Shown: positions 1-25,522 of the stretch, in pieces
Position numbering within the stretch: position 1 is the first letter of the stretch
How the letters are laid out: each line of letters opens with the position of its first letter
NCBI RefSeq assembly: GCF_016801985.1
Contig: NZ_JAEVLS010000005.1
Span: 310,001 to 374,000 of the forward strand
DNA: 64,000 nucleotides
Origin: Steroidobacter gossypii
GTDB lineage: Bacteria; Pseudomonadota; Gammaproteobacteria; Steroidobacterales; Steroidobacteraceae
Reading direction: 5' to 3'
The notes under the pieces: generated by a model
Seen by the model: only the letters and a program-made list of their open reading frames with translations
The model's database searches: none
What the model was told of the DNA's origin: nothing
Program-made: the position numbers and the translations under genes

Positions 1-1165
1 AGTACGGCAGGACGCCATAGAAACAGGTGCGCCGCTCGTCCGTGGGCTCGAGCACCTCGGTGACAAACGGACTTCTGACATGGCTCGCGATCCACAACTC
101 GCGCAGCAGCGCTGATCGAAGCACAGCATCGAGACCGGGACGCGGCTTGGGGAACTTCATGATCACACGACGGTGCTCCCGCCGATCGGTAGCGCGGAAC
201 ACTCGCATGTATGGGCCATCGGCCAGCAATTCGCCGAGCTCATAGTCGTCGATGATCTCGCCCGTGTTCGGAGCGTTTCGCAAAGGCCAGGTCGAATGGG
301 CAATTTCCAGATCGGCGATCTGCGTTTCAGGCAGCGAGAGCACATCGAGCACCAGCGCGGTCGCGTTGTCCGCCCCCGAATTGCTCACTGCCTGTTCGAC
401 CAGCTGAATCGCTGTTTCCTCCGGCGCCGCTCGCATCGCAAGCGTAGCCAATATTTCTGCGTGCGAAAGTCGGCCGTGCACTCCATCACTGCAGATAAGG
501 TAACGATCATGAACTTGCAGGCCGTCGATGGCGTGGTCGGCGCACAACCGATCTTCCACTCCCATCGCGCGAGTCAGTACGCTGCTGGTGCCTGGCGCGC
601 CGAGCGTGTGATCGGTAGTGAGCAAGGACAGCTCACGATCGCGCAGGCGGTAAATTCGCGAGTCCCCAAGATGGAGCAGATGAGCGCGGCGGCCGCACAG
701 AACCAGTGCGCTCAACGTGCACGCCATGCCGTTGAGATTCGGATCCGAGCGGCCCATCGAGTGAATCCAACGATTCACTGCGTCCGCCGATCGGGCACTG
801 ATGCGCGGCACGCCCACGGTGATCGGCTGCCCGACGCAACCTTCTATGAAGCCGCGAACGGCGATCTCCGCCGCGGTTCGCCCGCCTTTGGCGCCGCCCA
901 TGCCGTCCGCTAGCGCCGCAACCACACCAAGCGCTGGCTGCCGCGTCTGCTCTGCGATGTAACAAGCGGCGAAATCTTCGTTCCGCGCCCGTCCGCCTTG
1001 GTGCGTGCAACTGCCGATGCCGACGCGGAGGCCCACATCTGGTGCAGCTGATCGTTGCGGCGGCGGCGGCAGGCCCGTCGCGCTTGGGTGCTGCTCCGGG
1101 CCCGAGACTTGCACTGCCGGTACGGCTTCATTCACCGACGATGTTCCAGGGTATTGAGGGGGCAT
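1..1165 (-). CDS. PP2C phosphatase / Ser-Thr protein kinase fusion (3' end outside window)
   Basis: An open frame of 388 codons enters from the left edge with no stop. Residues 1-45 are a Pro/Ser-rich leader. A PP2C domain follows, with RNEDF at 61-65 and DGMGG at 87-91 (metal-binding Asp), then GDSR, then a conserved SDG and a GADNAT motif. After about residue 295 a protein kinase N-lobe begins (YELGELL, then VIMKF as the candidate ATP-binding Lys, then RELW as helix C); the rest is off the edge. Phosphatase-kinase fusions of this kind sit beside nirBD and the nitrate transporter in Pseudomonas assimilatory nitrate clusters, and the next gene here is that transporter. Inference: a reversible phosphorylation module tied to nitrate assimilation. 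The ATG at 1163-1165 has no clear ribosome site; a GTG at 1135 is an alternative. Confidence 0.85.
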   Translation of the reverse strand, partial: MPPQYPGTSSVNEAVPAVQVSGPEQHPSATGLPPPPQRSAAPDVGLRVGIGSCTHQGGRARNEDFAACYIAEQTRQPALGVVAALADGMGGAKGGRTAAEIAVRGFIEGCVGQPITVGVPRISARSADAVNRWIHSMGRSDPNLNGMACTLSALVLCGRRAHLLHLGDSRIYRLRDRELSLLTTDHTLGAPGTSSVLTRAMGVEDRLCADHAIDGLQVHDRYLICSDGVHGRLSHAEILATLAMRAAPEETAIQLVEQAVSNSGADNATALVLDVLSLPETQIADLEIAHSTWPLRNAPNTGEIIDDYELGELLADGPYMRVFRATDRREHRRVIMKFPKPRPGLDAVLRSALLRELWIASHVRSPFVTEVLEPTDERRTCFYGVLPY

Positions 1166-1166
1166 T

Positions 1167-2381
1167 TTGATCAGCCGCGATTTTTTCAAGGCGGGGCATT
1201 TTCCCACGCTGCTGGCCGCGTTCTTCTACTTTGACATGAGCTTCATGGTCTGGGTGCTGCTTGGCGCGCTGGCCGTGCAAATGTCGGCGGAAATCGGCCT
1301 GAACGCCGCGCAGAAAGGCTTCATGGTGGCGTTGCCTGTGCTCGCCGGCGCGCTGCTCAGAGTCGTGTTCGGTGTGCTGGTCGATCGATTGAAGCCCCGG
1401 CGCGCTGGCCTGATCGGACAACTCATCGTGATCGGCGGGCTGACTCTGGCCTGGCTCATCGGAGTCGATAGTTATATGGGCACGCTGGCTGTCGGCCTGG
1501 TGCTGGGCGTGGCCGGAGCATCTTTCGCAGTGGCGCTGCCGCTCGCGTCTCGATGGTATCCACCGCAGTATCAAGGCACCGCCTTGGGCATCGCGGGCGC
1601 GGGCAATTCGGGGACTGTGTTCGCGTCGCTGTTTGCTCCTGGCCTGGCTGCCATGGTCGGCTGGAACAATGTGCTCGGCCTCGCCGTGCTGCCGCTGGCC
1701 GTCGCGTTCGCGTTTTATTTCTTTGCGGCCAAGGACAGCCCCACTACTCCGCCGCCGAAGCAGTGGTCGGAGTACCTCGCCACGTTCCGCATGAGCGATG
1801 CGTGGTGGTTCATGTTTTTCTATGCCGTCACGTTCGGCGGATTCGTGGGCCTGGCCTCTTCCCTGGCGATCTATTTCAACAGCGAATACGGTCTCGATGC
1901 GGTGACGGCGGGCTTCTTCACGGCCGGCTGCGTCTTCGTCGGCTCGCTCGTGCGCCCGATCGGCGGCGCGCTCGCGGATCGCATCGGCGGCATCAGAACG
2001 TTGACCATCATGTATGCGGTCGCCGCGCTGATGCTGATCGTGGTCAGCTTCCGACCTGACAGTGTTTATACCGCGCTGTCGCTGTTCGTTGCCGGCATGC
2101 TGGCGTTCGGCATGGGCAATGGCTCGGTGTTTCAGCTGGTGCCGCAGCGGTTTCGTCACGAGATCGGCATCATGACCGGCCTGGTCGGGATGACGGGCGG
2201 CATCGGTGGCTTCTTTCTCGCCTCGAGCCTGGGCATTTCTAAACAACTCACCGGCAGCTATCAGGCCGGCCTGCTCGCGTTCGCTTCGCTCGCCATCCTG
2301 GCGCTGGCAGGACTGACCAGCATCAAACACCGCTGGCGCACGACCTGGGGCGCAGTAGGCGTGGCCGGCGCTCGCATCTAG
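1167..2381 (+). CDS. narK: NarK/NasA-type nitrate/nitrite MFS transporter
   Basis: 404 residues with about 12 hydrophobic segments. The N-terminus (FKAGHFPTLLAAFFYFDMSF) and the glycine-rich stretches GIAGAGNSGTVF and GLVGMTGGIGGFF are hallmarks of the NarK family, whose members import nitrate or exchange it for nitrite across the inner membrane. The length is typical. The start is TTG at 1167, behind a GAGGGG ribosome site at 1156-1161. That start lies one base from the ATG of the divergent phosphatase/kinase, so the promoter must lie inside the neighbour's coding sequence or one start is wrong. Pairing with a PP2C/kinase points to assimilatory uptake; no nitrate reductase is visible on this side, and it may lie left of the window. 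Confidence 0.88.
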   Translation: MISRDFFKAGHFPTLLAAFFYFDMSFMVWVLLGALAVQMSAEIGLNAAQKGFMVALPVLAGALLRVVFGVLVDRLKPRRAGLIGQLIVIGGLTLAWLIGVDSYMGTLAVGLVLGVAGASFAVALPLASRWYPPQYQGTALGIAGAGNSGTVFASLFAPGLAAMVGWNNVLGLAVLPLAVAFAFYFFAAKDSPTTPPPKQWSEYLATFRMSDAWWFMFFYAVTFGGFVGLASSLAIYFNSEYGLDAVTAGFFTAGCVFVGSLVRPIGGALADRIGGIRTLTIMYAVAALMLIVVSFRPDSVYTALSLFVAGMLAFGMGNGSVFQLVPQRFRHEIGIMTGLVGMTGGIGGFFLASSLGISKQLTGSYQAGLLAFASLAILALAGLTSIKHRWRTTWGAVGVAGARI

Positions 2382-2474
2382 TCACAAGTCCCGCGACCAG
2401 CACTTGGTCGGGGTCGGGCGGAAGCTTGAAACGCTGATTCGTGCGCGTAGACTCCAGCACGGAGGACGATCAGC

Positions 2475-2969
2475 GTGTTGGAGCTGCTCATGGCACTTGC
2501 TATCACCTCACCGGCTTTTGCCGACGGTGGACCGATGGACGCGCGCTACACCTGCGAAGGCGAGGATATCTCACCGGCGCTGGAGTGGACGGGCGAGCCG
2601 GCGGGCACCAGGAGCTTCGCCTTGATCGTCGACGATCCCGACGCGCCCGATCCTAAAGCACCCAAACTGACCTGGGTGCACTGGGTGGCGTACAACATCC
2701 CCGCCGACGTGCACTCGCTCGCGGAAAATGCTGGCAGAGAGGGTGCGCTGGCCGCAGGCAAAGATGGCGCGAACGACTGGAAGCGCGGCGGTTACGGCGG
2801 CCCGTGTCCGCCGATCGGCACCCATCGCTACTTTTTCAAGCTCTACGCACTCGATACCGTGCTGCCCGATCTCGGTCGCCCTACCAAGACGCAATTGCTC
2901 GATGCGATGAAAGGCCACGTGCTTGCGGAGGCGCAGCTCATCGGGACGTATAAGAAAAAGAATCCCTGA
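2475..2969 (+). CDS. YbhB/YbcL family (PEBP-like) protein
   Basis: 164 residues from a GTG start, chosen because GGAGGA at 2461-2466 is 8 bases upstream. The phosphatidylethanolamine-binding fold is shown by the ligand-pocket motif DDPDAP near residue 55, the WVHWVAYNIP segment and the second pocket motif GGYGGPCPPIGTHRYFF near residues 98-114. Bacterial members (YbhB, YbcL) resemble Raf kinase inhibitor protein, but their ligand and role are unknown. The length matches the cytoplasmic type, and no convincing signal peptide is present. It appears monocistronic. Confidence 0.85.
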   Translation: MLELLMALAITSPAFADGGPMDARYTCEGEDISPALEWTGEPAGTRSFALIVDDPDAPDPKAPKLTWVHWVAYNIPADVHSLAENAGREGALAAGKDGANDWKRGGYGGPCPPIGTHRYFFKLYALDTVLPDLGRPTKTQLLDAMKGHVLAEAQLIGTYKKKNP

Positions 2970-3035
2970 TCAACATCGACGGCTGCCGTGCTCCGCTGAT
3001 GCCCCGTCGCGCGCCGGGCGCGCTATTCTTATGCA

Positions 3036-3896
3036 ATGATGCTTTCACATGTACGTTTACTCTGCGGCTTCATCCTTTGCTGCTTGCTCCTCCGAGCGGA
3101 AGCCGACACCCCTCAAAGCGGCGTCATCACAGTCGCGAGCTACAACATCCGCTACAACAATCCTCAGGATGGCGCTAACGCCTGGCCGAATCGCCGTGAA
3201 GCCGTCAAAGCCTTGATCCGCTACCACGACTTCGACGTGTTCGGCACGCAGGAAGGACTGGCGGACCAGATCGCGGATCTGGCGCAGATGAGCGAGTACG
3301 CGCATGTCGGTGCCGGTCGGGACGACGGCAAGAGCGCGGGCGAACATTCGGCGATTTTTTTCAGGACCAGCCGTTTCTCGGCAGTCCAGCACGGGGACTT
3401 CTGGCTGAGCGAAACTCCCGACCGACCGTCCTTGGGCTGGGACGCGAAATGTTGCAACCGAGTGACATCGTGGGTGCAGTTACGAGACAAATACAGCGGT
3501 AAATCGTTCTTCGTCTTCTCCGCCCACTTCGATCATGAAGGCATCGTCGCGCGTCGCGAGTCCGCGAAGTTGCTGACCGAAAAGATCAAGGCCATCGCCG
3601 GTGAGAGCGCCGTGATCTGTGTGGGCGATTTCAATGCCGCCCCGGCATCCGAGCCCATTGCCACCATGCGAAGCGTACTGCGCGATGCCCACGACGCCAG
3701 CATCGCCCCGCCGTACGGCCCAACCGGAACCTACAACGGTTTCCAGCTGAATGCGCCGATGGGCGATCGCATCGACTACATCTTTGTGAGCCGCAGCGTA
3801 AAGGTGCTTCGCTACGCCGTGCTCAGCGATTCCATCGATCGGCAACGCTATCCCTCGGATCACCACCCGGTCGTGGCGAAGATCTCTTTGGATTGA
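3036..3896 (+). CDS. Exported endonuclease/exonuclease/phosphatase-family protein
   Basis: 286 residues. A signal peptide covers about residues 1-24 (hydrophobic LLCGFILCCLLL, ending near EADT). The mature part has the EEP/DNase I-like metallophosphoesterase order: SYNIRYNN, then GTQEG (metal-binding Glu), SAHFDHEG, CVGDFNA (catalytic Asp-Asn) and the C-terminal SDHHPVVA (catalytic Asp-His). Secreted members hydrolyse phosphodiesters in nucleic acids, sphingomyelin or inositides, and the sequence does not decide which. Tandem ATGs at 3036 and 3039 lack a Shine-Dalgarno sequence, and the TATTCTTAT just upstream could be a -10 element of a nearly leaderless transcript. Confidence 0.82.
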   Translation: MMLSHVRLLCGFILCCLLLRAEADTPQSGVITVASYNIRYNNPQDGANAWPNRREAVKALIRYHDFDVFGTQEGLADQIADLAQMSEYAHVGAGRDDGKSAGEHSAIFFRTSRFSAVQHGDFWLSETPDRPSLGWDAKCCNRVTSWVQLRDKYSGKSFFVFSAHFDHEGIVARRESAKLLTEKIKAIAGESAVICVGDFNAAPASEPIATMRSVLRDAHDASIAPPYGPTGTYNGFQLNAPMGDRIDYIFVSRSVKVLRYAVLSDSIDRQRYPSDHHPVVAKISLD

Positions 3897-4003
3897 GCCT
3901 CCGCGCCGGCCGGTTCCGCGGCTACGCCACTCCCTACTTCCAATAGATGCCGGATTCGGCTAGTTAAGGCGAGGGTCGTGGCGACGGATCGAAGTAGAAC
4001 AAG

Positions 4004-7000
4004 ATGGATCACAGATCGCTTGCCTACGCGAGCTACTGGCGCAATAGCCTTGCCGACGCCGAGCTGGGCCGGGGAGCGCTGAAACGGCGGGACGTCACCG
4101 GGTTGACGCGGATCCCGCGTCAGCAACTATTCAAAGGGGTAACGCCTGCAGACCTCGTCCGAGCGTGGTTTGCGGAGGAGCCGGAGCACGTCAAGACAGT
4201 CGAAGTGATGATCCGGCCGCAAGTGCATGTGGCTCGCACCGAGCACGGTCAGCGACCGAACAACGGCGTTCCGGAATATCTCACCCCACTGGTCACACCC
4301 GGTCTGCTCGCGCGTGATGGGCGACTGTATCCGGCCGCCGGCACGACCATCCCGCGAGATCTGCTGGAGCCGCTGGAGCATGGCTCGTTTGCCATTGGCA
4401 ACGTCGACGATCTGGATACATTTCTTACCACCGATGCCGTTCCCGGCATCGAGTGGAACGCCGACGCCAATGAAGCGCTCGATGCGCAAGGCTTCGAAGA
4501 GCGTTGGTTGAACTACCGCAAGGCTTGTCAACGGTTGCTGGAAGCTGTCTGCGCGGGCAGGCTCGTCGACAACCTGCTCCTCGAACTTGTCGACCATGCA
4601 TTCCTGGTCAAGAAAGATTCGGTGCAAGGAGCCGCTCGGCGCATCCTGGCGCTTTACGATCACATGCGCAACCACCGGCGCAGCACGCCATTGTTCGATC
4701 GGTATGCCTCCGAAGCGATCGATCCCATCGAGCCATGTTTGCCTGCGCACGCGCTGTTTTCGACACGGCTCGGCCATGCCAGCGACGCGTTCGCGCTGGC
4801 AGCACTCCAACGCGACGCGTTGAACCATCTCCTGGCGGCGCGCGAAAGCGAGATTCTGGCGATCAATGGCCCACCGGGCACAGGAAAAACCACCCTGCTG
4901 CTGTCCGTTGTGGCCACGCTTTGGGCGCAAGCGGCGCTTGAAAAAGGCGAACCGCCATTCATCGTGGCCGCCTCCACCAACAACCAGGCGGTCACCAATA
5001 TCATCGACGCGTTCGGCAGAGATTTCGCGTCGGGCTCCGGCCCACTGGCCGGACGCTGGCCGTCGCGGATCACGAGCTTCGGCGCCTACTTCCCGTCGCG
5101 CCGGCGCGAACAGAGGGCGGCCAGGCGCTATCAGACGCGAGACTTCTTCCTCGACTTCGAATCCGAGAGCAACCTCCAGCAAGCAGAGCGAGAGTACCTG
5201 CACGCTGCGGCAACTGCCTTCCCTGAGCTTCAGCTGCCAGACCTCGCTGTACTCGCCGAAAAGGAGTGGGCGTCGTTCTGCGAACAGCACCGACATACGG
5301 CCGCATCGCCGTCGCGGAACACGTTCGACGAGCGCTTTAGAGAAACAATGATCCGTCCGCTGATCCAACGAGTCGTGGACCGGCTTCACGCTCAGCTCAG
5401 CGCCGAGATCGAGAAACTCCGCACGATAGAGTCGGCTTGGAAGGATGTGGTACAGGCACGTGAATCGGTGCTTGCTGAATTGGGCGAGGATCCCGCCGCT
5501 GCCAGGGCGGCGCGACTGCACGAATCGGAGCGGCTCGAGGCTCTGATGCGCGATTTCGATGTGCTTCGCGGACGATGGGAAGAATACTGCGCGCGCGAAT
5601 CGATCTTCTATGCGCTGTTCGCGTGGCTACCGCCGGTGGCCAGGAAACGATTGCGCGTGGCACGCCTGTTTCTCAAGGACGCGTGGCCGGCGGGTTTCGC
5701 GCAGCAACCATGGACCCGGTTCGAGCAGATCGAACCGGCGATCGAGGAGATTGGCGCTGGATTGCGTGCAGATCTCGTTCGACAGCAGCAAATGGTTTGG
5801 AGGGCGGAGTCGTTGCTCGACGAGCTACGTCAATGCGAGCAGCGATGGGACCGCGCCGTCGAGCCGCTCCTGACCGCCCCACTCACTGCGCCTCTCGATC
5901 TGGCGCAAGCGGATGCGCTTGCCGATCAGCGGATTCGGTTTCAGATCTTTTTGCTCGCCACGCACTACTGGGAAGGTCGATGGCTGCTCGAGATGGGATC
6001 GCTGCTGAATCAGCTCGAGGAGGAAAGGAAAAAGACCGGAGCGAGCGCTCGAACCAGGCGCTGGCGTCGCTGGATGAAACTCACGCCGTGCATCGTCTCG
6101 ACCTTCCACATGCTGCCCAGTTTGCTGGAGGTCTCGCGCTACGAAGGGAACAACACATACGTCGATGACTACATGTACAACTTCGCGGACCTGCTGATCG
6201 TCGACGAGGCAGGTCAGGTGTTGCCCGAGGTCGCGGGCGCTTCTTTCGCGCTGGCGAAACGAGCCCTGGTGATCGGCGACACCTTGCAGATCGAGCCCAT
6301 GTGGTCGCAGCCACGCCAGGTGGATATCGGCAATCTGTTGCGCGAGAAATTGCTCCCGGACAATGCTTCTTACGAGCCATTCCAGCGACTGTGCGAAATC
6401 GGCAAGACGGCATCCGCCGGCAGCGTCATGCGTATCGCTCAGTGCGCCACACGGTATCACCAGGTGCCGGAGCTGCCTCGCGGCCTGTTCCTGTTCGAAC
6501 ACCGGCGCTGCTTCAACGAGATCATTCGTTATTGCAACGAGCTTTGTTATCGAGGGAAGTTGGTTCCAGTGCGCGGCACCAAGGCCGACGCGCTGCAGGA
6601 AGACGGCGCCTGCTGCGACCGATTGCCTGCGATGAGTTATCTGCACATCGACGGCATCTGCCAGTCTCGCGGCGGAGGCAGTCGATTCAACCAGCTCGAG
6701 GCCGAAGTGATCGCCACCTGGCTGGCGCAACACAAAGTCGAGCTGGAAGCGATATACCGAAAACCACTCGGCGATATCGTCGGCGTGGTCACACCGTTCA
6801 TCTCGCAAGTGCAGGCGATCGCGCGCGCATGCCGCAAGCTGGGACTTCAGGTCGGCTCCGACGAAGGCGAGCTGACCGTCGGCACTGTGCATTCACTGCA
6901 GGGCGCAGAACGACTCGTGATGATCTTCTCACCCGTCTACACCAAACACTCGGACGGCCAGTTCATCGACAAGAGCGCGAGCATGCTGAACGTTGCCGTA

Positions 7001-7660
7001 TCGCGCGCCAAGAATACTTTCCTCGTGTTTGGCGACATGGATGTGTTCGAGCTGGTGTCGAGCTCGAGCCCACGCGGCAAGCTTGCGGCATCGTTATTCC
7101 GCGACGATGCGCAGGAACTGCAGTTCCACCGGCCAGTGCGCCGCGACCTGCAATCGGCACAGGCCAGCATCGCTCAACTGAGAGACGCCCGGGAGCACGA
7201 TGATTTCCTGCGTGATGTGCTCACCGTCGCCGCACGCGAAGTCCACATCGTCAGCCCCTGGATCAGACTCGACTGCATCCGCCAAACCGGCGCTCTCACC
7301 GCCATGTCGGATGCAGTACGGCGCGGAGTCGATGTTCGCATCTATACGGACGTGGGATCCAACACCTGGGACCGCGACCGGTCCGTTGAGCAAAGAAAGG
7401 TTCGCGACCTGCAAGACACCGTGGCCGCGCTCGGCGCAGAAAAGATTCGCGCCGTTCTGGTTCGCAAGGTGCATAGCAAAGTCGTGATCGGCGACGAGAA
7501 CATCTACTGCGTGGGATCGTTCAACTGGTTCAGCGCCCGGCGCGACACGAACGGCGCACGCCACGAGACCTCACTCGTCTACCGGGGCCCGCACTTGAAA
7601 GAAGAGATCACCGTGATGAAGCTAAGCCTGCAAAATCGAGCCGCGAAATTTGGGCGATAG
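4004..7660 (+). CDS. SF1 (DNA2/Upf1-like) helicase fused to PLD-family nuclease; Mokosh type II-like candidate
   Basis: 1218 residues. An N-terminal region of about 280 residues has no recognised domain. Walker A GPPGTGKTT lies near residue 288, followed by a long alpha-helical insertion. Walker B LLIVDEAGQ is near 730, and the C-terminal helicase motifs VGTVHSLQGAE and LNVAVSRAKN are near 959 and 996. The last 130 residues form a phospholipase D/nuclease domain with one complete HxKxxxxD motif (HSKVVIGD) followed by GSFNW. One protein joining a COG1112-type helicase to a PLD nuclease is the described architecture of the Mokosh type II anti-phage system; assignment to it is inference. No defence genes flank it and no partner is needed in that type. 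The start has only a weak ribosome site. It could instead be a DNA or RNA repair enzyme. Confidence 0.8.
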   Translation: MDHRSLAYASYWRNSLADAELGRGALKRRDVTGLTRIPRQQLFKGVTPADLVRAWFAEEPEHVKTVEVMIRPQVHVARTEHGQRPNNGVPEYLTPLVTPGLLARDGRLYPAAGTTIPRDLLEPLEHGSFAIGNVDDLDTFLTTDAVPGIEWNADANEALDAQGFEERWLNYRKACQRLLEAVCAGRLVDNLLLELVDHAFLVKKDSVQGAARRILALYDHMRNHRRSTPLFDRYASEAIDPIEPCLPAHALFSTRLGHASDAFALAALQRDALNHLLAARESEILAINGPPGTGKTTLLLSVVATLWAQAALEKGEPPFIVAASTNNQAVTNIIDAFGRDFASGSGPLAGRWPSRITSFGAYFPSRRREQRAARRYQTRDFFLDFESESNLQQAEREYLHAAATAFPELQLPDLAVLAEKEWASFCEQHRHTAASPSRNTFDERFRETMIRPLIQRVVDRLHAQLSAEIEKLRTIESAWKDVVQARESVLAELGEDPAAARAARLHESERLEALMRDFDVLRGRWEEYCARESIFYALFAWLPPVARKRLRVARLFLKDAWPAGFAQQPWTRFEQIEPAIEEIGAGLRADLVRQQQMVWRAESLLDELRQCEQRWDRAVEPLLTAPLTAPLDLAQADALADQRIRFQIFLLATHYWEGRWLLEMGSLLNQLEEERKKTGASARTRRWRRWMKLTPCIVSTFHMLPSLLEVSRYEGNNTYVDDYMYNFADLLIVDEAGQVLPEVAGASFALAKRALVIGDTLQIEPMWSQPRQVDIGNLLREKLLPDNASYEPFQRLCEIGKTASAGSVMRIAQCATRYHQVPELPRGLFLFEHRRCFNEIIRYCNELCYRGKLVPVRGTKADALQEDGACCDRLPAMSYLHIDGICQSRGGGSRFNQLEAEVIATWLAQHKVELEAIYRKPLGDIVGVVTPFISQVQAIARACRKLGLQVGSDEGELTVGTVHSLQGAERLVMIFSPVYTKHSDGQFIDKSASMLNVAVSRAKNTFLVFGDMDVFELVSSSSPRGKLAASLFRDDAQELQFHRPVRRDLQSAQASIAQLRDAREHDDFLRDVLTVAAREVHIVSPWIRLDCIRQTGALTAMSDAVRRGVDVRIYTDVGSNTWDRDRSVEQRKVRDLQDTVAALGAEKIRAVLVRKVHSKVVIGDENIYCVGSFNWFSARRDTNGARHETSLVYRGPHLKEEITVMKLSLQNRAAKFGR

Positions 7661-7731
7661 ACGACAGCGTCGCGCGATTTCAATTTGACATAAATTCAAT
7701 GTTTTGGTTCGCCGATTTCATACAACCGAGC

Positions 7732-7758
7732 TGGTTATAACCAAGTCGTTCATATACT
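7732..7758 (+). promoter_or_regulatory. 12-bp palindrome next to a TATACT -10-like element
   Basis: TGGTTATAACCA at 7732-7743 is a perfect palindrome. It is followed 9 bases later by TATACT (7753-7758), a good -10 hexamer, 34 bases before the lipoprotein ATG at 7792. A dimeric regulator could bind over the -35 region. This rests on sequence pattern only. Confidence 0.4.
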
Positions 7759-7791
7759 GTGCTGGAAGAACCATCGGGGAGGAAAGCACAG

Positions 7792-10467
7792 ATGGAAACT
7801 GCGACTGGAATAAGACGCGCGCTGGTGTTGCTAACGGCCTTGTTGCTTGGGGCCTGCGGCGGGGGCGGGGGCGGCGGCGACTCGTCCGGTACTACACCAC
7901 CTCCCCAGGGAGCCACTTTCAGAGCGACCGGCGGCGTCGCGGAAAAAGGTCCGCTGATCCGGGGCAGCACCGTCACCGCGCAAGAGCTGGACGCCGCTCT
8001 GTCCCCTACCGGCCGGCAGTTTTCATATCAAGTGACGACCGATCTGGGCACGTTCGAGCCCACCTCGACCTTCAACAGCCAATACATCGGCGTCAACGCC
8101 ACCGGCTATTATTTCGATGAGGTGCTGGGCGCGGTGTCCTCCGGCACCGTGACGCTCAACAGTTACAACGATCTCTCGACCAACGGCCAATTGAACGTCA
8201 ACATCCTGACGACGCTGGCCTACCAGCGCATCCGGCATCTGGTCGTGAACTCCAATCTATCGTTCGCCGCGGCCCGAACCCAGGCGGAGAACGAAGTGCT
8301 CGCGGCGTTGAACATTCCGGCTGGCAACTACGGCATGTTCAGCACATTCGATCTTGCCGGAGACAGCGACGGCGATCACCTGCTCGCCGCGATTTCGAGC
8401 CTGTTCGTGGATGGCAACCAGGCTGGGGCGCTCAGCGCCCTGATGAGCGCTTTTCAGAGCGATATCGCCACTGACGGACAACTGTCCGACGTGACGACCC
8501 GGATGGCCCTGGCGCAAGCGGCGCAACGTCTCAACGCGAGCACCGTTGCGGCCAATCTCACTCAGCAATATGCATCGCTCGGCGTCAGTCTCACCGCCGC
8601 CGATATCTCCAACTGGCTCGATCAAGACGGCGACGGTCTCGTCGGCAAAGCCGAGTTCGAGGTACACACTGCGGATCCCTCATCAGTCTTCACCCTCCCC
8701 TCCGAGATCGTCGCCCCATTGGTTGGGAAGACGATAACCGCGGACGGCGGCCAACTGTCGGTGAACGGCTCGCCAGTGAGCTCCGCCACCGTGCAGGCGA
8801 ACGACGCCGTCGCCTTGTCGCCTGCCACTTCGGGCCCGTTCCCGAGCGGAGTGCTTCGTGTTTATCTGCTTGCAGACAACCAGCGAGTGGCGCGCGTCTC
8901 GTTCATCTCCGGGGTGATCTCCCTGTCCATCGACCCGTCGGCGCCCGGGGCCGCCGTTAGCCTGAAGCGTCAACTGACTGCGACGGGTCATCTCAGCGAC
9001 GGCGGCACCGTGAACCTGAGCAACAGCGTCCAATGGACATCCAGCCCCTCCAGCATCGCTACCATAACGCCGACTGGCCTGGTGGAGACGCACGCGCCCG
9101 GCTCGGCGACGATCACTGCAACGCTGGGAAGGCTTTTCACCACCGCAACCTTCACAGTGACTTCGGCAGTCGTGGAATCGCTGGTGCTTACGCCCGATCC
9201 ATTGCGCACCGGCGTGGGTTTGACGGTGCGGCCCAAGGTCACCGGGCACTTTTCCGACGGAACCACCGACGATGTCACAAGCCTGGTCACGTGGAACTCG
9301 AGCGCACCGGGTGTCGCGACGGTGGATCTCACGGGACTCGTGACAGGCGTGTCGCTCGGCACTACGAATATCTCGGCAACCATCGGCTCGGTGACCGGCA
9401 GCACGGCTTTGTCGGTCATCACCGGCCTGTGGACTCCCACCCAAAGCATGGCGACCCTTCGGGGTCAGGTCACGGCAACTATGATGCCGAACGGTAAAGT
9501 GCTCGTGACCGGCAGCCAGAACGGTGCCGGCAGCGGGAGCACAGCCACCGAGATCTTCGATCCCGTGACGCAAACCTGGTCGCCGGGAGCATCGCTCGCA
9601 AGTGGCCGATTTGGCGCTGCTGCGGTTCTGCTGGGTGACGGCCGCGTGCTCGTTGCGGGTGGCGGCGATTCCGTCAATTCCGTGTCGAACAGTGCCGAAG
9701 TCTACGATCCGGTGACGGATACCTGGTCTAGCGCCGGCACTTTCTCCGACGCGCGCAAGTTCCCGACGATGAATCTCTTGTCGAATGGCAAGGTACTGAT
9801 CGTCGGCGGTCAATCGAATTCGGGAGTGCTGGCCAGTGCCGCGCTCTACGACCCCGCAACCAACACCTGGTCCGCAGCAGACAGTTTGGCGACCGCTCGC
9901 GCGTGGCATACTGCAACTGTCTTGCAAGATGGCCGCGTGCTGATCGTTGGCGGAGCGTCTGGCACATCGCAGTCCGACTCGCCGATCGCCACAGCGGAGC
10001 TCTACGATCCTGCAACCGACAGCTGGTCGGCTGCGGCGAGCATCCCCCAAGCGCGAGGCTCACATACGGCGACTCGGTTGCTCGATGGCCGAGTGCTGGT
10101 GGCTGGCGGACGTGACATCACAGATCCCTGGGCACTAACCAGCCTCAATGTAGAAATCTACGATCCGGTGAGCGACACCTGGACCGCCACCGGAGGCACC
10201 CTCGCCCTCACCGAGCACACAGCAACGTTGCGGTCGGATGGCAGGGTGTTGCTGACGGGCGGACGGTGGACGCCAAACAACGTTTATTCTTTCCAATCTT
10301 TGGTGTACGACCCCGGCACCAACGGCATTTCCGCGCACGGCAATTTGGCCAACGGGAATCGCCTGTACGCACACACCGCTGTGCTACTTCCGAATGATGT
10401 GGTGCTGCTGATCGGAGGGCACTACGTCAACCTGCAGCCTCAGCCTTGGGCGCAGTGGTATTGGTGA
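7792..10467 (+). CDS. Kelch-propeller lipoprotein with Ig-like (BIG_2) domains
   Basis: 891 residues from ATG 7792, preceded by GGGGAGG; this start fits better than the in-frame GTG at 7759. A lipoprotein signal ends in LLGAC, followed by a poly-glycine linker. Residues 45-280 are uncharacterised and end in an EF-hand-like calcium loop (DQDGDGLVGKAEF, near 276). Two bacterial Ig-like BIG_2 repeats follow (about 390-550, each with a conserved W-S-S core). Six kelch repeats come last (consensus L.DGRVL..GG....S.ELYDP.T.TWS), which should close a beta-propeller. Such proteins sit on the cell surface and bind glycans or proteins; the ligand is unknown. A 12-bp hairpin follows the stop. Confidence 0.82.
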   Translation: METATGIRRALVLLTALLLGACGGGGGGGDSSGTTPPPQGATFRATGGVAEKGPLIRGSTVTAQELDAALSPTGRQFSYQVTTDLGTFEPTSTFNSQYIGVNATGYYFDEVLGAVSSGTVTLNSYNDLSTNGQLNVNILTTLAYQRIRHLVVNSNLSFAAARTQAENEVLAALNIPAGNYGMFSTFDLAGDSDGDHLLAAISSLFVDGNQAGALSALMSAFQSDIATDGQLSDVTTRMALAQAAQRLNASTVAANLTQQYASLGVSLTAADISNWLDQDGDGLVGKAEFEVHTADPSSVFTLPSEIVAPLVGKTITADGGQLSVNGSPVSSATVQANDAVALSPATSGPFPSGVLRVYLLADNQRVARVSFISGVISLSIDPSAPGAAVSLKRQLTATGHLSDGGTVNLSNSVQWTSSPSSIATITPTGLVETHAPGSATITATLGRLFTTATFTVTSAVVESLVLTPDPLRTGVGLTVRPKVTGHFSDGTTDDVTSLVTWNSSAPGVATVDLTGLVTGVSLGTTNISATIGSVTGSTALSVITGLWTPTQSMATLRGQVTATMMPNGKVLVTGSQNGAGSGSTATEIFDPVTQTWSPGASLASGRFGAAAVLLGDGRVLVAGGGDSVNSVSNSAEVYDPVTDTWSSAGTFSDARKFPTMNLLSNGKVLIVGGQSNSGVLASAALYDPATNTWSAADSLATARAWHTATVLQDGRVLIVGGASGTSQSDSPIATAELYDPATDSWSAAASIPQARGSHTATRLLDGRVLVAGGRDITDPWALTSLNVEIYDPVSDTWTATGGTLALTEHTATLRSDGRVLLTGGRWTPNNVYSFQSLVYDPGTNGISAHGNLANGNRLYAHTAVLLPNDVVLLIGGHYVNLQPQPWAQWYW

Positions 10468-10486
10468 CCTCTCGTTGAGGGCACTT

Positions 10487-10515
10487 CGGCCAGTTCGATC
10501 GATTCGAACTGGCCG
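10487..10515 (+). terminator. Strong hairpin after the kelch lipoprotein gene
   Basis: CGGCCAGTTCGA (10487-10498) and TCGAACTGGCCG (10504-10515) form a perfect 12-bp stem with a 5-base loop, 20 bases after the stop. No T-tract follows, so this may be an RNA-stabilising hairpin rather than a full intrinsic terminator. Confidence 0.5.
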
Positions 10516-10699
10516 GAACCCCACGAAGCGGCACGAAAGCCTCGGCGCCGCGAACTGTTCTCCATAGACGTTAGCGATCGGCCGCCATTGGACAATCGAT
10601 TGGCTACGCCGGCGGTCGCCCCCTAGTCTGCCCTCCCATCGAACGGCGGCGCCTTTTGCGCCGCGCGTTCTCCAAACCACTTCGGGTAAGGGGCGACTG

Positions 10700-11047
10700 A
10701 TGAAATCACGTTTACTTTCCATATCGATGTTTGTGGCGGCGGCCGCAATCGCCAGCGGTCCTGCGGCCGCAACCACCACTTCCACTCGGTCACCGGACGC
10801 GCAGGCGCAGGCCTCTGCTTTGCTAAGCGGGGTGCGAACGTCGTCAAGCGCGGGTACGCAGATGCGATCGAACTCATCGCCAACTGCAGGCGACGCGCAC
10901 CAGCATGCGGCTGCCCTGCTCAGCGGTGCGCTGACGACAGGTGCAAGCAGCGCCAATCCATCCTCATCCTCGAAATCGGCGCATGAGGATGCGCACGCCC
11001 ATGCCGCTCGCCTGCTCATGCATGGAGCAACGAGAGCGGGCAGATGA
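10700..11047 (+). CDS. Small exported protein with three Ala/His-rich repeats
   Basis: 115 residues, with AAGGGG upstream of the ATG. A signal peptide covers about residues 1-25 (ending SGPAAA). The mature part contains three copies of one unit, roughly (D/E)A-x-A-x-A-x-A-L-L-x-G: DAQAQASALLSG, DAHQHAAALLSG and DAHAHAARLLMHG, joined by Ser/Thr-rich linkers. I do not recognise a family. The His residues in units two and three could bind metal. It stands between two hairpin- or palindrome-bearing intergenic stretches and has no operon partner. Confidence 0.7.
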   Translation: MKSRLLSISMFVAAAAIASGPAAATTTSTRSPDAQAQASALLSGVRTSSSAGTQMRSNSSPTAGDAHQHAAALLSGALTTGASSANPSSSSKSAHEDAHAHAARLLMHGATRAGR

Positions 11048-11154
11048 GCTATCGAATGTGACCTCTACTGGTCGGATAAGAACAGAGCCGGCCTGATCCG
11101 TGCGGACGGATGCAGGCCGCGCAGAAAATTTTGTGATCTTCCAGTCCGGGTAGT

Positions 11155-11167
11155 TGCAAATTTTGCA
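11155..11167 (+). promoter_or_regulatory. Candidate operator upstream of the lipoprotein gene
   Basis: TGCAAA-T-TTTGCA is a perfect 6-1-6 inverted repeat, about 110 bases before the ATG at 11278. It is AT-rich in a GC-rich background. The regulator is unknown. Confidence 0.3.
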
Positions 11168-11277
11168 TGATGTGCGCGAGACTGTATCTGTCGATGCCGG
11201 GCGCCAACGATTAAGACAAGCGCGGCAGATATCACAAGACATAAGCAGATTGTCCCGTAACACTGGGAGGTGTTCGC

Positions 11278-11988
11278 ATGGCTCGCGTTTTTCGGGTTCT
11301 GGCTTTCCTGGCGTCCGCATTGCTGTTGTCAGCGTGCCAAACCTTTCAGACCACTGCTTATAACAAGGCCGAAAGCAACGTTAAGTCGGTCAGTCTCGCG
11401 CCCATGGGCATCCCCGAGAAGCCTGCCGTGCGCATCCTTGCCTCCGTCGGCGCGAATTTCGGCTTGATCGGCGCGGCCATCGAAGAGAGCCGCGCGGCCG
11501 CCGCCAGCAAGGAGCTGCAGGAGATCTTCGCCCAGTCCAACTACGACTATCGCAAGGACCTGCAGGATTCGCTGGCCCTGTCGTTCTCGGAAATCTCGCT
11601 GCCCATCAACGCCGCCTCCGGCGAGCGGCCCGAGAAGGAGCAGCTGAAGTTCCTGACCAGCTGCCCGGCGGCGACGCCGGATGCCGATGCTTGCCTTGAC
11701 GTGTTCTTGACGTACTTCGGGTACATGTCGGCCGGGGCGACCACCGATTACGTCCCGACGATCCATATGACGGCGAAACTGGTGCGCCTCAGCGACCGTG
11801 CGACGCTGTTCCAGGATCAGGTGCATTACAACGCCCTGGCGGGCTCCAAGGCGATCGTCGTACAGCCGGCAGAAGAGTATCGATTCAAGGATCGAGACGC
11901 GATGAAGGCTGACCCGCAGCGGGTGACCGCGGGAATCCAGCAGGCAGTGCGGGCGGTGACCAACGAACTGGCCAAGCAGTTCCAGTAA
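11278..11988 (+). CDS. Conserved hypothetical lipoprotein
   Basis: 236 residues. GGGAGG just before the ATG supports the start. The lipobox LLSAC places the lipidated Cys at about residue 20. The mature part is mixed alpha/beta and contains one short Cys-bounded segment (SCPAATPDADAC) around residue 125. No family is recognised. It is followed after 19 bases by the next exported protein gene and is probably co-transcribed with it. Confidence 0.72.
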   Translation: MARVFRVLAFLASALLLSACQTFQTTAYNKAESNVKSVSLAPMGIPEKPAVRILASVGANFGLIGAAIEESRAAAASKELQEIFAQSNYDYRKDLQDSLALSFSEISLPINAASGERPEKEQLKFLTSCPAATPDADACLDVFLTYFGYMSAGATTDYVPTIHMTAKLVRLSDRATLFQDQVHYNALAGSKAIVVQPAEEYRFKDRDAMKADPQRVTAGIQQAVRAVTNELAKQFQ

Positions 11989-12007
11989 CGTTTCGGGGGG
12001 CATCACC

Positions 12008-12640
12008 GTGGCTGCATTGGAACGCTCCCTGGTTCGCACTGTCGCTCTGGCGGTAGCTGCATGTCTGGCGAGTCATGCCTCGCATGCTGGCAAGAAGGAA
12101 GAGCCGCGCGTATGCGCGGCCAGCACCGCCGAACTGAAGGTCGTCTCGCTCGAAGAACACGTCAAGAAAAAGAAAGGCAAGTTCGTCCTCGGCAAAAAGA
12201 GCGAATGCCTGGTCACCAGCGACGGCATCAATCTGCCGGCCGTTCTGGTCGAGCTGCCGCCGTTCGTCGAGCCTTACGTGGTGAACATTCAGAGCCTGCT
12301 CGGCGGAACTGTATTGGCGCCGCGCGTAGACGCGCTCGATGCCGCGAAGGCGCATCGTCGCAGCCTTGGGCTTGCCGACGTCAAGAGCCGCGGCGACTCG
12401 TTGTCCATCGATGTTTTCATGAACCAGGAGAATGCCGAAGAGCGTTATCTGGTGCTGTATCCCGATCCCGAGGCGCTCGGGCGCGGCGAGTCGCGCAGCT
12501 CGATGGGCATGCAGACAACGTATATCGCCACCGGTTACTGGATGTCGGGAACCGAGTCCAAGCAGCTGGTGAACTATGTGGATGCCGGCACCCTGATCGT
12601 GACCCTGAAAGGATCACAGTGGGATAAGAAAAAGAAGTAG
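12008..12640 (+). CDS. Exported MalM-like hypothetical protein
   Basis: 210 residues from a GTG preceded by a GGGGGG run. A signal peptide ends near ASHASHA. The middle has a beta-rich segment (PPFVEPYVVNIQSLLGGTV, then LAPRVDALDA), then ERYLVLYPDPEALGRGE. Its layout resembles the periplasmic MalM family, whose exact role in maltose uptake is unresolved. The likeness is from reading only and there are no maltose genes nearby. A Lys-rich C-terminus (DKKKK) is unusual. Likely in an operon with the lipoprotein gene upstream. Confidence 0.7.
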   Translation: MAALERSLVRTVALAVAACLASHASHAGKKEEPRVCAASTAELKVVSLEEHVKKKKGKFVLGKKSECLVTSDGINLPAVLVELPPFVEPYVVNIQSLLGGTVLAPRVDALDAAKAHRRSLGLADVKSRGDSLSIDVFMNQENAEERYLVLYPDPEALGRGESRSSMGMQTTYIATGYWMSGTESKQLVNYVDAGTLIVTLKGSQWDKKKK

Positions 12641-12648
12641 CGCGCTCC

Positions 12649-13119
12649 TCACGTCCGGCTGCGTTTGGAATGTCGTTTGCCGCGCAGCTGATCGAAATCG
12701 GCGAGCGCGTCGCTTGCGGTCACCTCCTGTAGCAGCGCCTGCGCCTCGCTCGACGTGTCGAAGAAACCGACTCTGATGCTGGTTGAGGAGACATAGCGCA
12801 AGTACGTCACCTGCCCGGCGACGGTTTCCACCTTCTGCCGCACATGCGGCGCATTGCCGATATCGATACCCACGACATTGGCGCCGGGTCGGACGTTCAC
12901 CAGCACCCAAGGCTGCTTCTTCACAAGCTTGCCTGCCACCGTACCGTTCACGACCACCTTGAACCCGCCGAACGCGGGCATCTTGCCCGCGTTATAAACG
13001 CAAACGCTCGCGCTCTCGGCCGAGGCTACGGGCGGCGTACAGGGCGCATCGCTCGCCCGTGCCGAAGATGCGAGCAAAAGACCGAGGATGCTGACCCCAG
13101 CGGCGATGAGTTTCGACAT
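12649..13119 (-). CDS. DUF2846-type exported protein
   Basis: 156 residues. A signal peptide ends near SARASDA. The mature part follows the DUF2846 pattern: a short first strand (ASVCVYNAG), a substrate-like strand (FKVVVNGTVAGKL), a Pro-Gly turn in VNVRPGANVVGI, and a terminal strand pair (VTYLRYVSST). The function of the family is unknown; members are small lipoproteins or periplasmic proteins. AGGGACA precedes the ATG. It is convergent with the MalM-like gene, with 8 bases between stops. Confidence 0.72.
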   Translation of the reverse strand: MSKLIAAGVSILGLLLASSARASDAPCTPPVASAESASVCVYNAGKMPAFGGFKVVVNGTVAGKLVKKQPWVLVNVRPGANVVGIDIGNAPHVRQKVETVAGQVTYLRYVSSTSIRVGFFDTSSEAQALLQEVTASDALADFDQLRGKRHSKRSRT

Positions 13120-13207
13120 CTTGTCCCTGCCTTGCCGTGCTGCCGGCGGCTTGTCGTTCTCTATGCGCTTACTCTAAATGTATCGAGCGAGAAAGTCCCC
13201 CTGCCTT

Positions 13208-13228
13208 CGGGCTCCGAACTCGAGCCCG
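13208..13228 (-). terminator. Hairpin downstream of gdhA
   Basis: CGGGCTC (13208-13214) and GAGCCCG (13222-13228) can pair as a 7-bp stem with a 7-base loop, 22 bases past the gdhA stop. It lacks a T-tract on the minus strand, so terminator function is uncertain. Confidence 0.35.
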
Positions 13229-13249
13229 ATGACTCTGGTTTGCACTACT

Positions 13250-23913: not shown

Positions 23914-24278
23914 TACATCAACATGACCGATTACGTGTACGACGTGCTGCTACGTCGCTCCAGAATGAAGATGCACCCTCGATGAGTCTTCACGAACTGG
24001 AAGCGTGACAAGCACCGCAACTTCGATACTACGTACCTTCACAGCGTGCTCCACAGCATGGGCATCCACACACCCTGCACCACATCCGCCATGGGTTCGC
24101 CACGAAGCTGTTGAAGAACGGAATGACGCTGAAGGCTCTCAAGGAATTGCTCAGCCACAACGACATCAAGACGATGATGCGCTACGGCCATCTTGAAGCG
24201 TCGGACGTGTCACCGGAAGCGGTACGAATCTTCAACGAGCAGAACGCTGCTCGCCGGAAGGTGAAGAAGGCGGCCTAG
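23914..24278 (+). pseudogene. Broken tyrosine recombinase (phage-type integrase), C-terminal half
   Basis: One frame from 23914 reads like an integrase core (MTDYVYDVLLRRSRMK, then VFTNWKRDKHRNFD), interrupted by TGA at 23983-23985. From 24075 a second frame carries the catalytic box LHHIRHGFATKLLKNG, then LKELLSHNDIKTMMRYGHLE with the active-site Tyr, and ends in a Lys-rich tail at TAG 24276-24278. The HxxR and the His/Tyr pair are present, but a nonsense codon and a frameshift break it, and no N-terminal domain is seen. It marks old mobile DNA between rstB and the TauE gene. Confidence 0.78.
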
Positions 24279-24361
24279 TTACATAGCAGCGGAGCACATC
24301 GCGACCGGCCCAACAGATACAGCGTGCTACCCTAGTGGGGGATGATCGGCGTTTCCCATTG

Positions 24362-25168
24362 ATGAACACAAGCGACTTAGATGCAGCCCCTCGCGGCCTC
24401 GTATCCGCATTGCTCGCTGGGGCAGCCATCGGCGTACTAGGTGGCTTGATTGGCCTCGGCGGCGCAGAGTTCCGCCTGCCTGTTCTAATCGGGTTGTTCG
24501 GCTTCGTCGCGCTGGAGGCCGTAATCATCAATAAGGCGACTAGCTTGGTTGTCGTGGTCGCCGCGCTAATTTTCCGCATCCGAGCTGTTCCTATTGACGC
24601 GGTCCTGAACCACATCTCAGCGGTGGCAACCTTGCTGACAGGAAGTCTTATTGGTGCATGGTTCGGAGCCGACTTAGCAACACGCCTACACAGTAGAACA
24701 CTGTACAACGTCATCGCCGCCATGCTGGTCGGGATCGCCTTCGTCCTACTGGTCGCTCACGATCATCCATCGAACGCCGCCAGCTTTGCGCCTACAACTC
24801 AAATAATGCTTGGAGTGATTGCAGGGTTTGTTATTGGCGTAGTCGCATCTTTTCTCGGGGTCGCCGGCGGCGAGCTAATCATCCCAACTCTCGTTCTGCT
24901 ATTTGGTCTTGACCTCAAAGTCGCAGGCAGTCTTTCGTTAGCTGTCAGCTTACCGACGATGCTGGTTGGATTTTCACGTTACAGCAAAGATCAGAGCTTC
25001 AAGGCACTCGCAAAGTATCCACGGTTCGTTCTTGCGATGGCCGTAGGCTCCATATTCGGTGCATTCGTGGGCGGCCTGCTGCTTGGTATCGTTCCAAGCA
25101 ATGTCCTTTTGCCTTTGCTCTCCGCCATTCTGCTCATTTCGGCTTTCAAAGTCTGGCGCCATAAATGA
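24362..25168 (+). CDS. TauE/SafE-family membrane transporter
   Basis: 268 residues from ATG 24362 (a GTG at 24335 is in frame; neither has a clear ribosome site). Eight or nine hydrophobic segments form two similar halves: the first has GGLIGLGGAEFRLPVLIGLFG and the second VASFLGVAGGELIIPTLVLL. This repeated G-x-G-G-G/A-E-P signature defines the TauE/SafE family, which exports sulfite, sulfoacetate or related organic anions. The substrate cannot be told here. It uses more A/T-ending codons (cta, att, tta) than its neighbours and follows the broken integrase, so it was probably acquired. Confidence 0.83.
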   Translation: MNTSDLDAAPRGLVSALLAGAAIGVLGGLIGLGGAEFRLPVLIGLFGFVALEAVIINKATSLVVVVAALIFRIRAVPIDAVLNHISAVATLLTGSLIGAWFGADLATRLHSRTLYNVIAAMLVGIAFVLLVAHDHPSNAASFAPTTQIMLGVIAGFVIGVVASFLGVAGGELIIPTLVLLFGLDLKVAGSLSLAVSLPTMLVGFSRYSKDQSFKALAKYPRFVLAMAVGSIFGAFVGGLLLGIVPSNVLLPLLSAILLISAFKVWRHK

Positions 25169-25220
25169 GCGAACACGACCAACGCTTTCCGCGGGATACT
25201 ATCCCGCAGCCGAAACCCAG

Positions 25221-25238
25221 GGTAGGAAATCAGTCGGG
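25221..25238 (+). repeat. GGTAGG...CAGTCGG repeat, copy 1
   Basis: GGTAGGAAATCAGTCGGG. Near-identical units occur at 25448-25465 and 26181-26198 in the same orientation, flanking the orphan gene at 25523. Confidence 0.6.
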
Positions 25239-25293
25239 TTGCACACCGAAACCACCGTGGTTTTATCGCACAAATCCGCAGCTCAAATGATCA

Positions 25294-25400
25294 CTACGCT
25301 CCTTCCGGAATTTCAAAGGAAACCCCGCACCCTCCAATGCCGCAATAGCCTTGAGGATTTTTGGCGAGGTATTGCTGGTGAGAGTCGGCGCGAGCCTTGG
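25294..25400 (-). pseudogene. 3' remnant of a second msrA gene
   Basis: On the minus strand this reads [19 protein letters not shown], then [10 protein letters not shown] and a TAG stop, matching the C-terminus of MsrA encoded at 26269-26901. Across 68 aligned bases (25319-25386 against 26280-26347) 12 differ, and 11 of these are synonymous third-codon positions. The twelfth changes Tyr to Ser. The fragment therefore diverged while still under selection as a gene and was truncated later. Everything upstream of about 25400, including the GCFWG active site, is absent. Confidence 0.8.
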
Positions 25401-25447
25401 AACCTCTGCGGAAATACGATGGAGAACGCCGCTTCTTAGGATCAGCC

Positions 25448-25465
25448 GGTAGGATTTCAGTCGGG
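25448..25465 (+). repeat. GGTAGG...CAGTCGG repeat, copy 2
   Basis: GGTAGGATTTCAGTCGGG, two differences from copy 1. It lies just downstream of the orphan gene at 25523-26104 (minus strand). Confidence 0.55.
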
Positions 25466-25522
25466 GCGCCGCAGGGTCAATCGGTCGGGACTCGATCGCC
25501 GTGCCTCAGATCACTCGTTCGC

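What the first reader, a model, noticed from the sequence alone, without database searches (positions are those of the whole stretch)
4004..7660. Single-gene helicase-PLD protein resembling Mokosh type II defence
A DNA2/Upf1-like helicase with complete Walker A and B motifs carries a C-terminal PLD domain with an intact HxKxxxxD. This is the described shape of Mokosh type II. It stands without a defence island, and its first 280 residues are unassigned.
Basis: partly seen in the sequence, partly recalled or inferred. Interest (0 to 1): 0.62.

Follow-up and report, generated by a model that had tools for sequence, protein, structure and literature searches.

The report
A solitary Mokosh type II gene
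This is an intact single-gene helicase-nuclease of the known bacterial anti-phage family Mokosh type II, sitting alone in a variable stretch of chromosome; it is a good example of a known kind rather than something new.

Summary
Observation and interpretation both hold. ORF 4004-7660 (+, 1218 aa) is intact and matches PADLOC's MkoC model end to end (1300.9 bits; next MkoA, 103). No housekeeping model comes near its cut-off. It is accessory: detected at E <= 1e-60 in 1 of 217 genomes of its family, its own. It lies in a 10.9-kb segment (2382-13249) at a junction where two congeners have about 0.8 kb. In a tree it pairs with Frateuria MkoC. The 'unassigned' N-terminus is shared by the family; in a confident model (pLDDT 92.8) it falls where Upf1/IGHMBP2-type helicases carry stalk and 1B. 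Residues 388-676 are a long helical insert, probably a coiled coil. The PLD motif is intact, one per chain, so an active site probably needs two chains. No antiviral activity was or could be tested. A by-product may matter more: 32 of 86 relatives in the tree keep helicase and N-region but lack the PLD, and the three tested still score 899-1079 bits with the MkoC model.

The parts
4004..7660 (+). MkoC, Mokosh type II helicase-PLD protein, 1218 aa
4004..4768 (+). N-terminal region, residues 1-255: helix, beta strands, long helices; read (by position) as the stalk and 1B region of a Upf1-like SF1B helicase, elaborated
   Evidence: model pLDDT 89 for residues 1-272 alone; full model mean 92.8; VIA alignments to IGHMBP2, Upf1, Sen1 start at model residue 1-2, to UvrD only at 253-256; aligned along its length in A1
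4868..4891 (+). Walker A, GPPGTGKT, residues 289-296
   Evidence: translation, invariant in A2 of 70 sequences
5165..6031 (+). Insert, residues 388-676, mostly long helices (438-493, 573-622, 633-676); coiled coil inferred from helix lengths, geometry not examined
   Evidence: DSSP of the model; median identity 27% in 54 PLD-bearing relatives
6203..6217 (+). Walker B-type motif DEAGQ, residues 734-738
   Evidence: translation; D734, E735, G737 invariant in A2
6497..7039 (+). Second RecA-like helicase lobe (AAA_12), residues 832-1012
7145..7603 (+). C-terminal PLD domain, residues about 1048-1200
   Evidence: Pfam PLDc_2 1071-1177; MkoB model matches 1033-1196
7472..7525 (+). Catalytic motif HxK(x4)D(x6)GSxN, residues 1157-1174
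   Evidence: translation; H in 56, K in 56, D in 54 of 58 PLD-bearing relatives
2382..13249 (.). Variable segment that holds MkoC: PEBP (2475-2969), EEP family (3036-3896), MkoC, kelch/Big_2 protein (7759-10467), small genes; flanked by conserved MFS/kinase and GDH genes
   Evidence: nucleotide match to two congeners stops at 2381 and resumes at 13247/13250; Pfam names

Best explanation
The gene is a complete MkoC, the single-protein form (type II) of the Mokosh defence system, gained horizontally and held alone in a variable chromosomal segment. Most likely mechanism: the N-terminal stalk/1B region, the two RecA lobes and a long helical arm form a Upf1/IGHMBP2-like SF1B motor that loads on single-stranded nucleic acid (RNA or an RNA:DNA intermediate of an invader) and moves along it with ATP. 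The C-terminal PLD domains of two chains pair into one Nuc/NucT/Zucchini-type active site that cuts the strand the motor feeds to it. Shown here: the sequence anatomy, the intact motifs, family membership, sporadic distribution. Predicted: the fold. Inferred: motor activity and polarity, PLD dimer, RNA-type substrate, and the anti-phage outcome.
For: Full-length MkoC match, 1300.9 bits. 37 plasmid records hold a relative over at least 80% of the query at 38.7-45.1% identity, 36 of them reaching residue 1212 or beyond. Tree: sister of Frateuria defendens MkoC (66% over 637 columns), inside sets of 15 and 36 rows all with PLD (98-99% SH-aLRT). Model of residues 1-1199: pLDDT 92.8, pTM 0.84; best VIA matches IGHMBP2-RNA Z 23.0, rmsd 5.2, 489 aligned; Upf1-RNA Z 22.4, rmsd 6.0, 481 aligned; Sen1 Z 21.6, rmsd 5.2, 545 aligned. 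PLD signature as in PMC5714352, whose passages say that PLD-family proteins form dimers with the active site at the interface. Sporadic: detected in 1 of 217 family genomes. Defence-type neighbours round relatives exceed a control: 221 PADLOC models hit among 109 neighbours of PLD-bearing relatives, type I specificity models in 6 of them, against 31 models among 110 control ORFs.
Against: No activity was tested. The locus itself has no other defence gene. Z of about 20-23 is shared by RNA and DNA helicases (Dna2 Z 20.1), so the fold does not settle the substrate. The dimer was not modelled. The PLD match is modest (33.6 bits). One of the 37 plasmid relatives stops matching at residue 1046, before the PLD (H37), and three of 58 PLD-bearing relatives have G or E at the PLD aspartate. 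GC and GC3 are those of the host, so a recent gain is not visible. The family search scored only the best few candidates per genome, so diverged copies may be missed. The neighbour counts are of redundant models, with hand-picked subsets and a control from one genus.
Confidence: 0.78

Rival explanations
1. It is a nucleic-acid surveillance or anti-plasmid/anti-transposon helicase-nuclease rather than an anti-phage one: same motor and nuclease, but the target is plasmid, transposon or aberrant host RNA/DNA. (This overlaps with the best explanation in mechanism.)
For: Fold matches are RNA-surveillance and repair helicases (Upf1, Sen1, IGHMBP2, Dna2). Relatives are carried on plasmids, near partition and relaxase genes in L035 and, in a PLD-less form, near a TraI-like relaxase gene in L042, which fits competition between mobile elements.
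Against: The family is filed in a defence database as anti-phage; nothing found here favours one invader over another.
Confidence: 0.2
2. It is a housekeeping Upf1/Dna2-like helicase with an accessory PLD.
For: Fold of the motor.
Against: Detected over its length in 1 of 217 family genomes; no housekeeping model reaches its cut-off.
Confidence: 0.02
3. It is an inactive leftover or a domesticated gene.
For: It stands alone, and its GC and GC3 are ordinary for the host (0.614 and 0.73), so acquisition need not be recent.
Against: Open over 1218 codons with the helicase and PLD motifs intact.
Confidence: 0.05

Closest known systems
Mokosh type II (MkoC; PADLOC PDLC03924)
   Same: Same order of parts, full-length profile match, single gene, PLD at the C-terminus
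   Different: 1218 aa against a 1136-position model; about 40 residues of the insert are gaps in five of six plasmid relatives. Solitary among genes without a defence match.
Mokosh type I (MkoA + MkoB)
   Same: SF1 helicase and PLD modules; 103 bits to MkoA, 58.7 bits to MkoB over the PLD
   Different: Type I is two genes with a kinase domain (as told in PMC11672841, passage); here one gene, and no kinase family among the Pfam matches of the protein
Upf1 / IGHMBP2 / Sen1 SF1B helicases
   Same: Motor fold and, by position, the N-terminal stalk and 1B region
   Different: Long helical insert at 388-676 and a C-terminal PLD; no equivalence of function shown
Nuc / NucT / Zucchini PLD nucleases
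   Same: HxK(x4)D(x6)GSxN signature (PMC5714352, passages); one copy per chain here
   Different: Fused to a helicase
PLD-less MkoC-like helicases (32 rows)
   Same: N-region, motor and insert; three tested match model positions 2-963, 5-963 and 5-963
   Different: End right after the second RecA lobe; no PLD found in the DNA held for the locus

Membership tests
Mokosh type II (MkoC) | Full-length match to the MkoC model as best hit | tested here: met
   1-1212 to 1-1135/1136, 1300.9 bits, next 103
Mokosh type II (MkoC) | COG1112-type SF1 helicase with intact Walker A and B, N-terminal to the PLD | tested here: met
   AAA_11/AAA_12; motifs invariant in 70 sequences. The COG number itself was not tested.
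Mokosh type II (MkoC) | C-terminal PLD with intact HKD | tested here: met
   PLDc_2 above cut-off; motif read in the translation and conserved
Mokosh type II (MkoC) | Single gene, no separate MkoA/MkoB partner | tested here: met
   Nine of ten neighbours had no PADLOC match at 1e-5; the tenth is a PP2C-kinase whose kinase domain matches generic models, MkoA 7-276 among them at 86 bits, but it lies on the conserved flank and is present in G001 and G002 too
Mokosh type II (MkoC) | Protects against phage | not testable with these tools
   needs a plaque assay
Mokosh type I | Two genes, helicase with kinase domain plus separate PLD | tested here: not met
   one gene, no kinase family among its Pfam matches
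Housekeeping IGHMBP2-type helicase (TIGR00376) | Score above the curated cut-off | tested here: not met
   48.4 against 348.9
PLD nuclease superfamily | HxK(x4)D(x6)GSxN and a dimeric active site | tested here: inconclusive
   motif met; dimer not modelled

The most novel reading that the evidence does not exclude
MkoC is one branch of a wider family whose constant part is the helicase with its N-region and helical arm, not the nuclease. PLD-less members (in the sample mostly Bacteroidota and Bacillota, with some Proteobacteria and others) have defence-type neighbours and would be a helicase-only defence system that the MkoC profile accepts. The PLD was gained or lost more than once (6 changes on the tree, at least 2 forced by starred branches), so the motor, not the cut, may be the antiviral act.
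Probability: 0.3. Interest if true: 0.5.

Novelty: new member of a known kind. Interest (0 to 1): 0.27.

Why it matters
It adds an intact, solitary MkoC in a bacterial family where no other was detected, with a confident full-length model that gives its unassigned N-terminus a likely identity. The wider lesson is practical: the MkoC profile also accepts proteins without the nuclease, so counts of Mokosh type II from profiles alone may mix two kinds of protein. PMC11811056 (passages) reports Mokosh in 93.8% of Bacillus cereus group genomes, most of it type II found by PADLOC, of which DefenseFinder detected none but one; PLD-less members are a possible cause that I did not test.

Tried and rejected
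Tried without result. The search for related loci with the single protein in genome contigs found no relative; the alignment A1 did. Foldseek with the N-region alone gave nothing at E <= 0.001 and VIA at best Z 5.2 over 46 residues, too weak to use; the reading as stalk/1B rests on its place in the full-length alignments. No direct repeat was seen that would mark the segment's ends. Among the near neighbours of 33 PLD-less relatives the largest cluster of similar proteins had 3 members, so no common partner was seen. Near DNA matches of the segment in plasmids: none. No paper on how Mokosh works was among the listings of eight searches of an open-licence library; the founding paper, whose DOI I recalled, is not held. 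Presence of PLD-less forms in their own genera could not be asked; in the family of G319 only two genomes are held, one with a match. A first script on the genus hits printed nothing and was run again with other settings.

Considered and rejected: a housekeeping helicase; Mokosh type I; that the other SF1 hits in the genus are MkoC. L132 is a PD-(D/E)XK/RNase H-type nuclease-helicase and L130 an AAA_11/12-PLD-zinc-ribbon protein; neither matches MkoC over its length.

Caveats on counts. Of 97 family rows 10 were dropped from the tree as fragments or outliers (L034, L041, L048, L065, L067, L073, L082, L127, L128, L129). In L065 and L067 the PLD is in a second ORF. The PLD search saw only the DNA held for each locus (up to about 6 kb either side, less in short contigs). 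The neighbour scans used 109 of 169 (A4) and 108 of 115 (A5) ORFs, after ORFs under 100 or over 1200 aa had been left out; the rest were cut from the listing or dropped by hand before the scan, so selection cannot be excluded. The control used 110 of 127 ORFs drawn at random; it comes from one genus and holds helicase loci fetched on purpose, hence its MkoA/MkoC hits. These are counts of models, which are redundant, not of genes; each output showed 25 of them.

Full report
1. What is there. The frame 4004-7660 on the + strand is open for 1218 codons from ATG, and the genome search reads it as one open frame. Pfam finds the two helicase halves AAA_11 and AAA_12 and a C-terminal PLDc_2 domain, all above cut-off.

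2. Which family. PADLOC's MkoC model matches from end to end with 1300.9 bits; MkoA follows with 103, and MkoB has 58.7 over the PLD. NCBIfam gives no family above its cut-off. Of 581 plasmid records with a match, 37 hold a relative over at least 80% of the query, at 38.7-45.1% identity; 36 of these reach residue 1212 or beyond and one stops at 1046. In an alignment with six plasmid relatives (one of them, Nitratidesulfovibrio, with 74% of the query covered) the helicase motifs and H1157/K1159 are invariant and the N-terminal 260 residues align along their length. The PLD aspartate is glycine in the Yoonia copy; in the wider set D is kept in 54 of 58.

3. How it is spread. In the genus (14 genomes) only the own genome has it over its length; six others have partial, weak matches, five in the helicase and one in the insert. 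In the family it was detected in 1 of 217 at E <= 1e-60, and in an even draw of the class in 3 of 369, its own and two partial ones: one in a short contig with the PLD, one a 992-aa form without it. In a tree of 87 rows the window protein pairs with Frateuria defendens (98% SH-aLRT, 66% identity over 637 columns) inside a proteobacterial set of 36 rows that all have the PLD. Such a pattern is that of a horizontally moved accessory gene.

4. Where it sits. Nucleotide similarity to two congeners (about 80%) ends at 2381, the last base of an MFS gene, and resumes (87%) at 13247/13250 with a glutamate dehydrogenase gene. Between these genes the congeners have 779 and 785 bases with one 218-aa gene, OmpA-like in the one I tested; the window has 10,868 bases with MkoC, a PEBP, an EEP-family protein, a kelch/Big_2 protein and small genes. 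A PEBP copy and another block of the segment lie on the far side of the dehydrogenase in one congener each, so the neighbourhood is shuffled locally. In two further genomes whose dehydrogenase region I took, G003 and G012, no MFS match lies in the 20-kb stretch. Insertion is likelier than loss because no other family genome gave a match, but the polarity is inferred. No defence island was seen. This is not odd for the family: the Stutzerimonas copy too stands among genes that look ordinary by eye, while some others have type I restriction-type genes among their nearest neighbours.

5. The N-terminus and the fold. The N-region alone (residues 1-272) folds with pLDDT 89 and has no clear match on its own. 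For the model of residues 1-1199 (pLDDT 92.8, pTM 0.84) the best-scoring solved chains are IGHMBP2, Upf1, Sen1 and senataxin (Z 21-23), with SARS-CoV-2 nsp13, Aquarius and Dna2 close behind (Z about 20). Those alignments start at model residue 1-3 (IGHMBP2 residue 3, human Upf1 residue 295-296); alignments to UvrD start only at 253-256. From established knowledge of Upf1-like helicases (recalled), the stretch before the first RecA lobe is the stalk and the 1B barrel, and the order helix, strands, long helices in the model fits. I therefore read residues 1-255 as an elaborated stalk/1B region; this is an inference from position. Residues 388-676 are a long helical insert, the least conserved part along with the N-region.

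6. How it probably works. A Upf1-like motor that moves on a single strand and a PLD that needs two chains for one active site (PMC5714352, passages) suggest a dimer that feeds a strand into a shared cutter. Passages in two papers by others say that Mokosh degrades viral transcripts (PMC11291487) or recognises phage RNA (PMC10013915), and one says phage genetic material in general (PMC11672841); I saw no primary data. The substrate stays open: Dna2 scores nearly as well as Upf1.

7. What the family shows. Of 96 related loci, 58 have the PLD in the main ORF and 38 do not. After removing fragments, split genes and outliers, 32 PLD-less rows are in the tree. In the DNA held, a PLD elsewhere in the locus was found for only two of the 38, both split genes. 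PADLOC's MkoC model gives three PLD-less proteins that I tested 899-1079 bits, stopping at model position 963. The neighbours of such loci also match defence models (138 models among 108 neighbours, among them type IV and type I restriction, AbiA, AbiE and LmuB), against 31 in a control that is small and partly biased. No common partner was seen. This suggests a helicase-only branch, and warns that a profile hit alone does not show a complete type II system. The window gene passes that check.

8. Verdict. An intact, solitary MkoC: a new member of a known kind. Interest is modest for the gene and higher for the PLD-less branch.

Noticed in passing
L042, L126 and 30 loci between L076 and L117 (the PLD-less rows): MkoC-like proteins of 877-1035 aa that end after the helicase and have no PLD in the DNA held; neighbours match many defence models; three tested are strong hits of the MkoC profile.
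   Followed up: partly
L130:3816-7295 (-) and L131:4404-7886 (+), two genomes of the same genus: A different helicase-PLD design: L130 has AAA_11/AAA_12, PLDc_2 and a topoisomerase-type zinc ribbon; best PADLOC match MkoA, 198.7 bits, partial. L131 was seen only as a similar weak hit.
   Followed up: partly
window 2-1207 (-), whole in L040:13349-15208: PP2C-kinase protein beside the MFS gene, conserved in G001 and G002; matches PADLOC PD-T4-6 and other kinase models, which looks like an over-call on a generic kinase domain.
   Followed up: partly
L042:246-1187 (-): 314-aa ORF without a Pfam match, just downstream of a PLD-less MkoC-like gene and near a TraI-like relaxase gene.
   Followed up: no
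L043:4019-5986: In Frateuria defendens the MkoC ORF starts at about residue 60 of the window protein, next to ORFs that look like an IS66-type element, so that copy may be cut short at its N-terminus (element named by eye).
   Followed up: no
window 24001-26000: GC drops to 0.554 against about 0.62 around it; holds a TauE-like exporter and ORFs without a Pfam match.
   Followed up: partly
window 2382-13249, with L144 and L145: The junction between the MFS and glutamate dehydrogenase genes seems to be a variable site in the genus.
   Followed up: partly
plasmid record CP136011.1 (hit H37): A relative on a Pseudomonas sp. plasmid whose match stops at residue 1046, before the PLD; not examined.
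   Followed up: no
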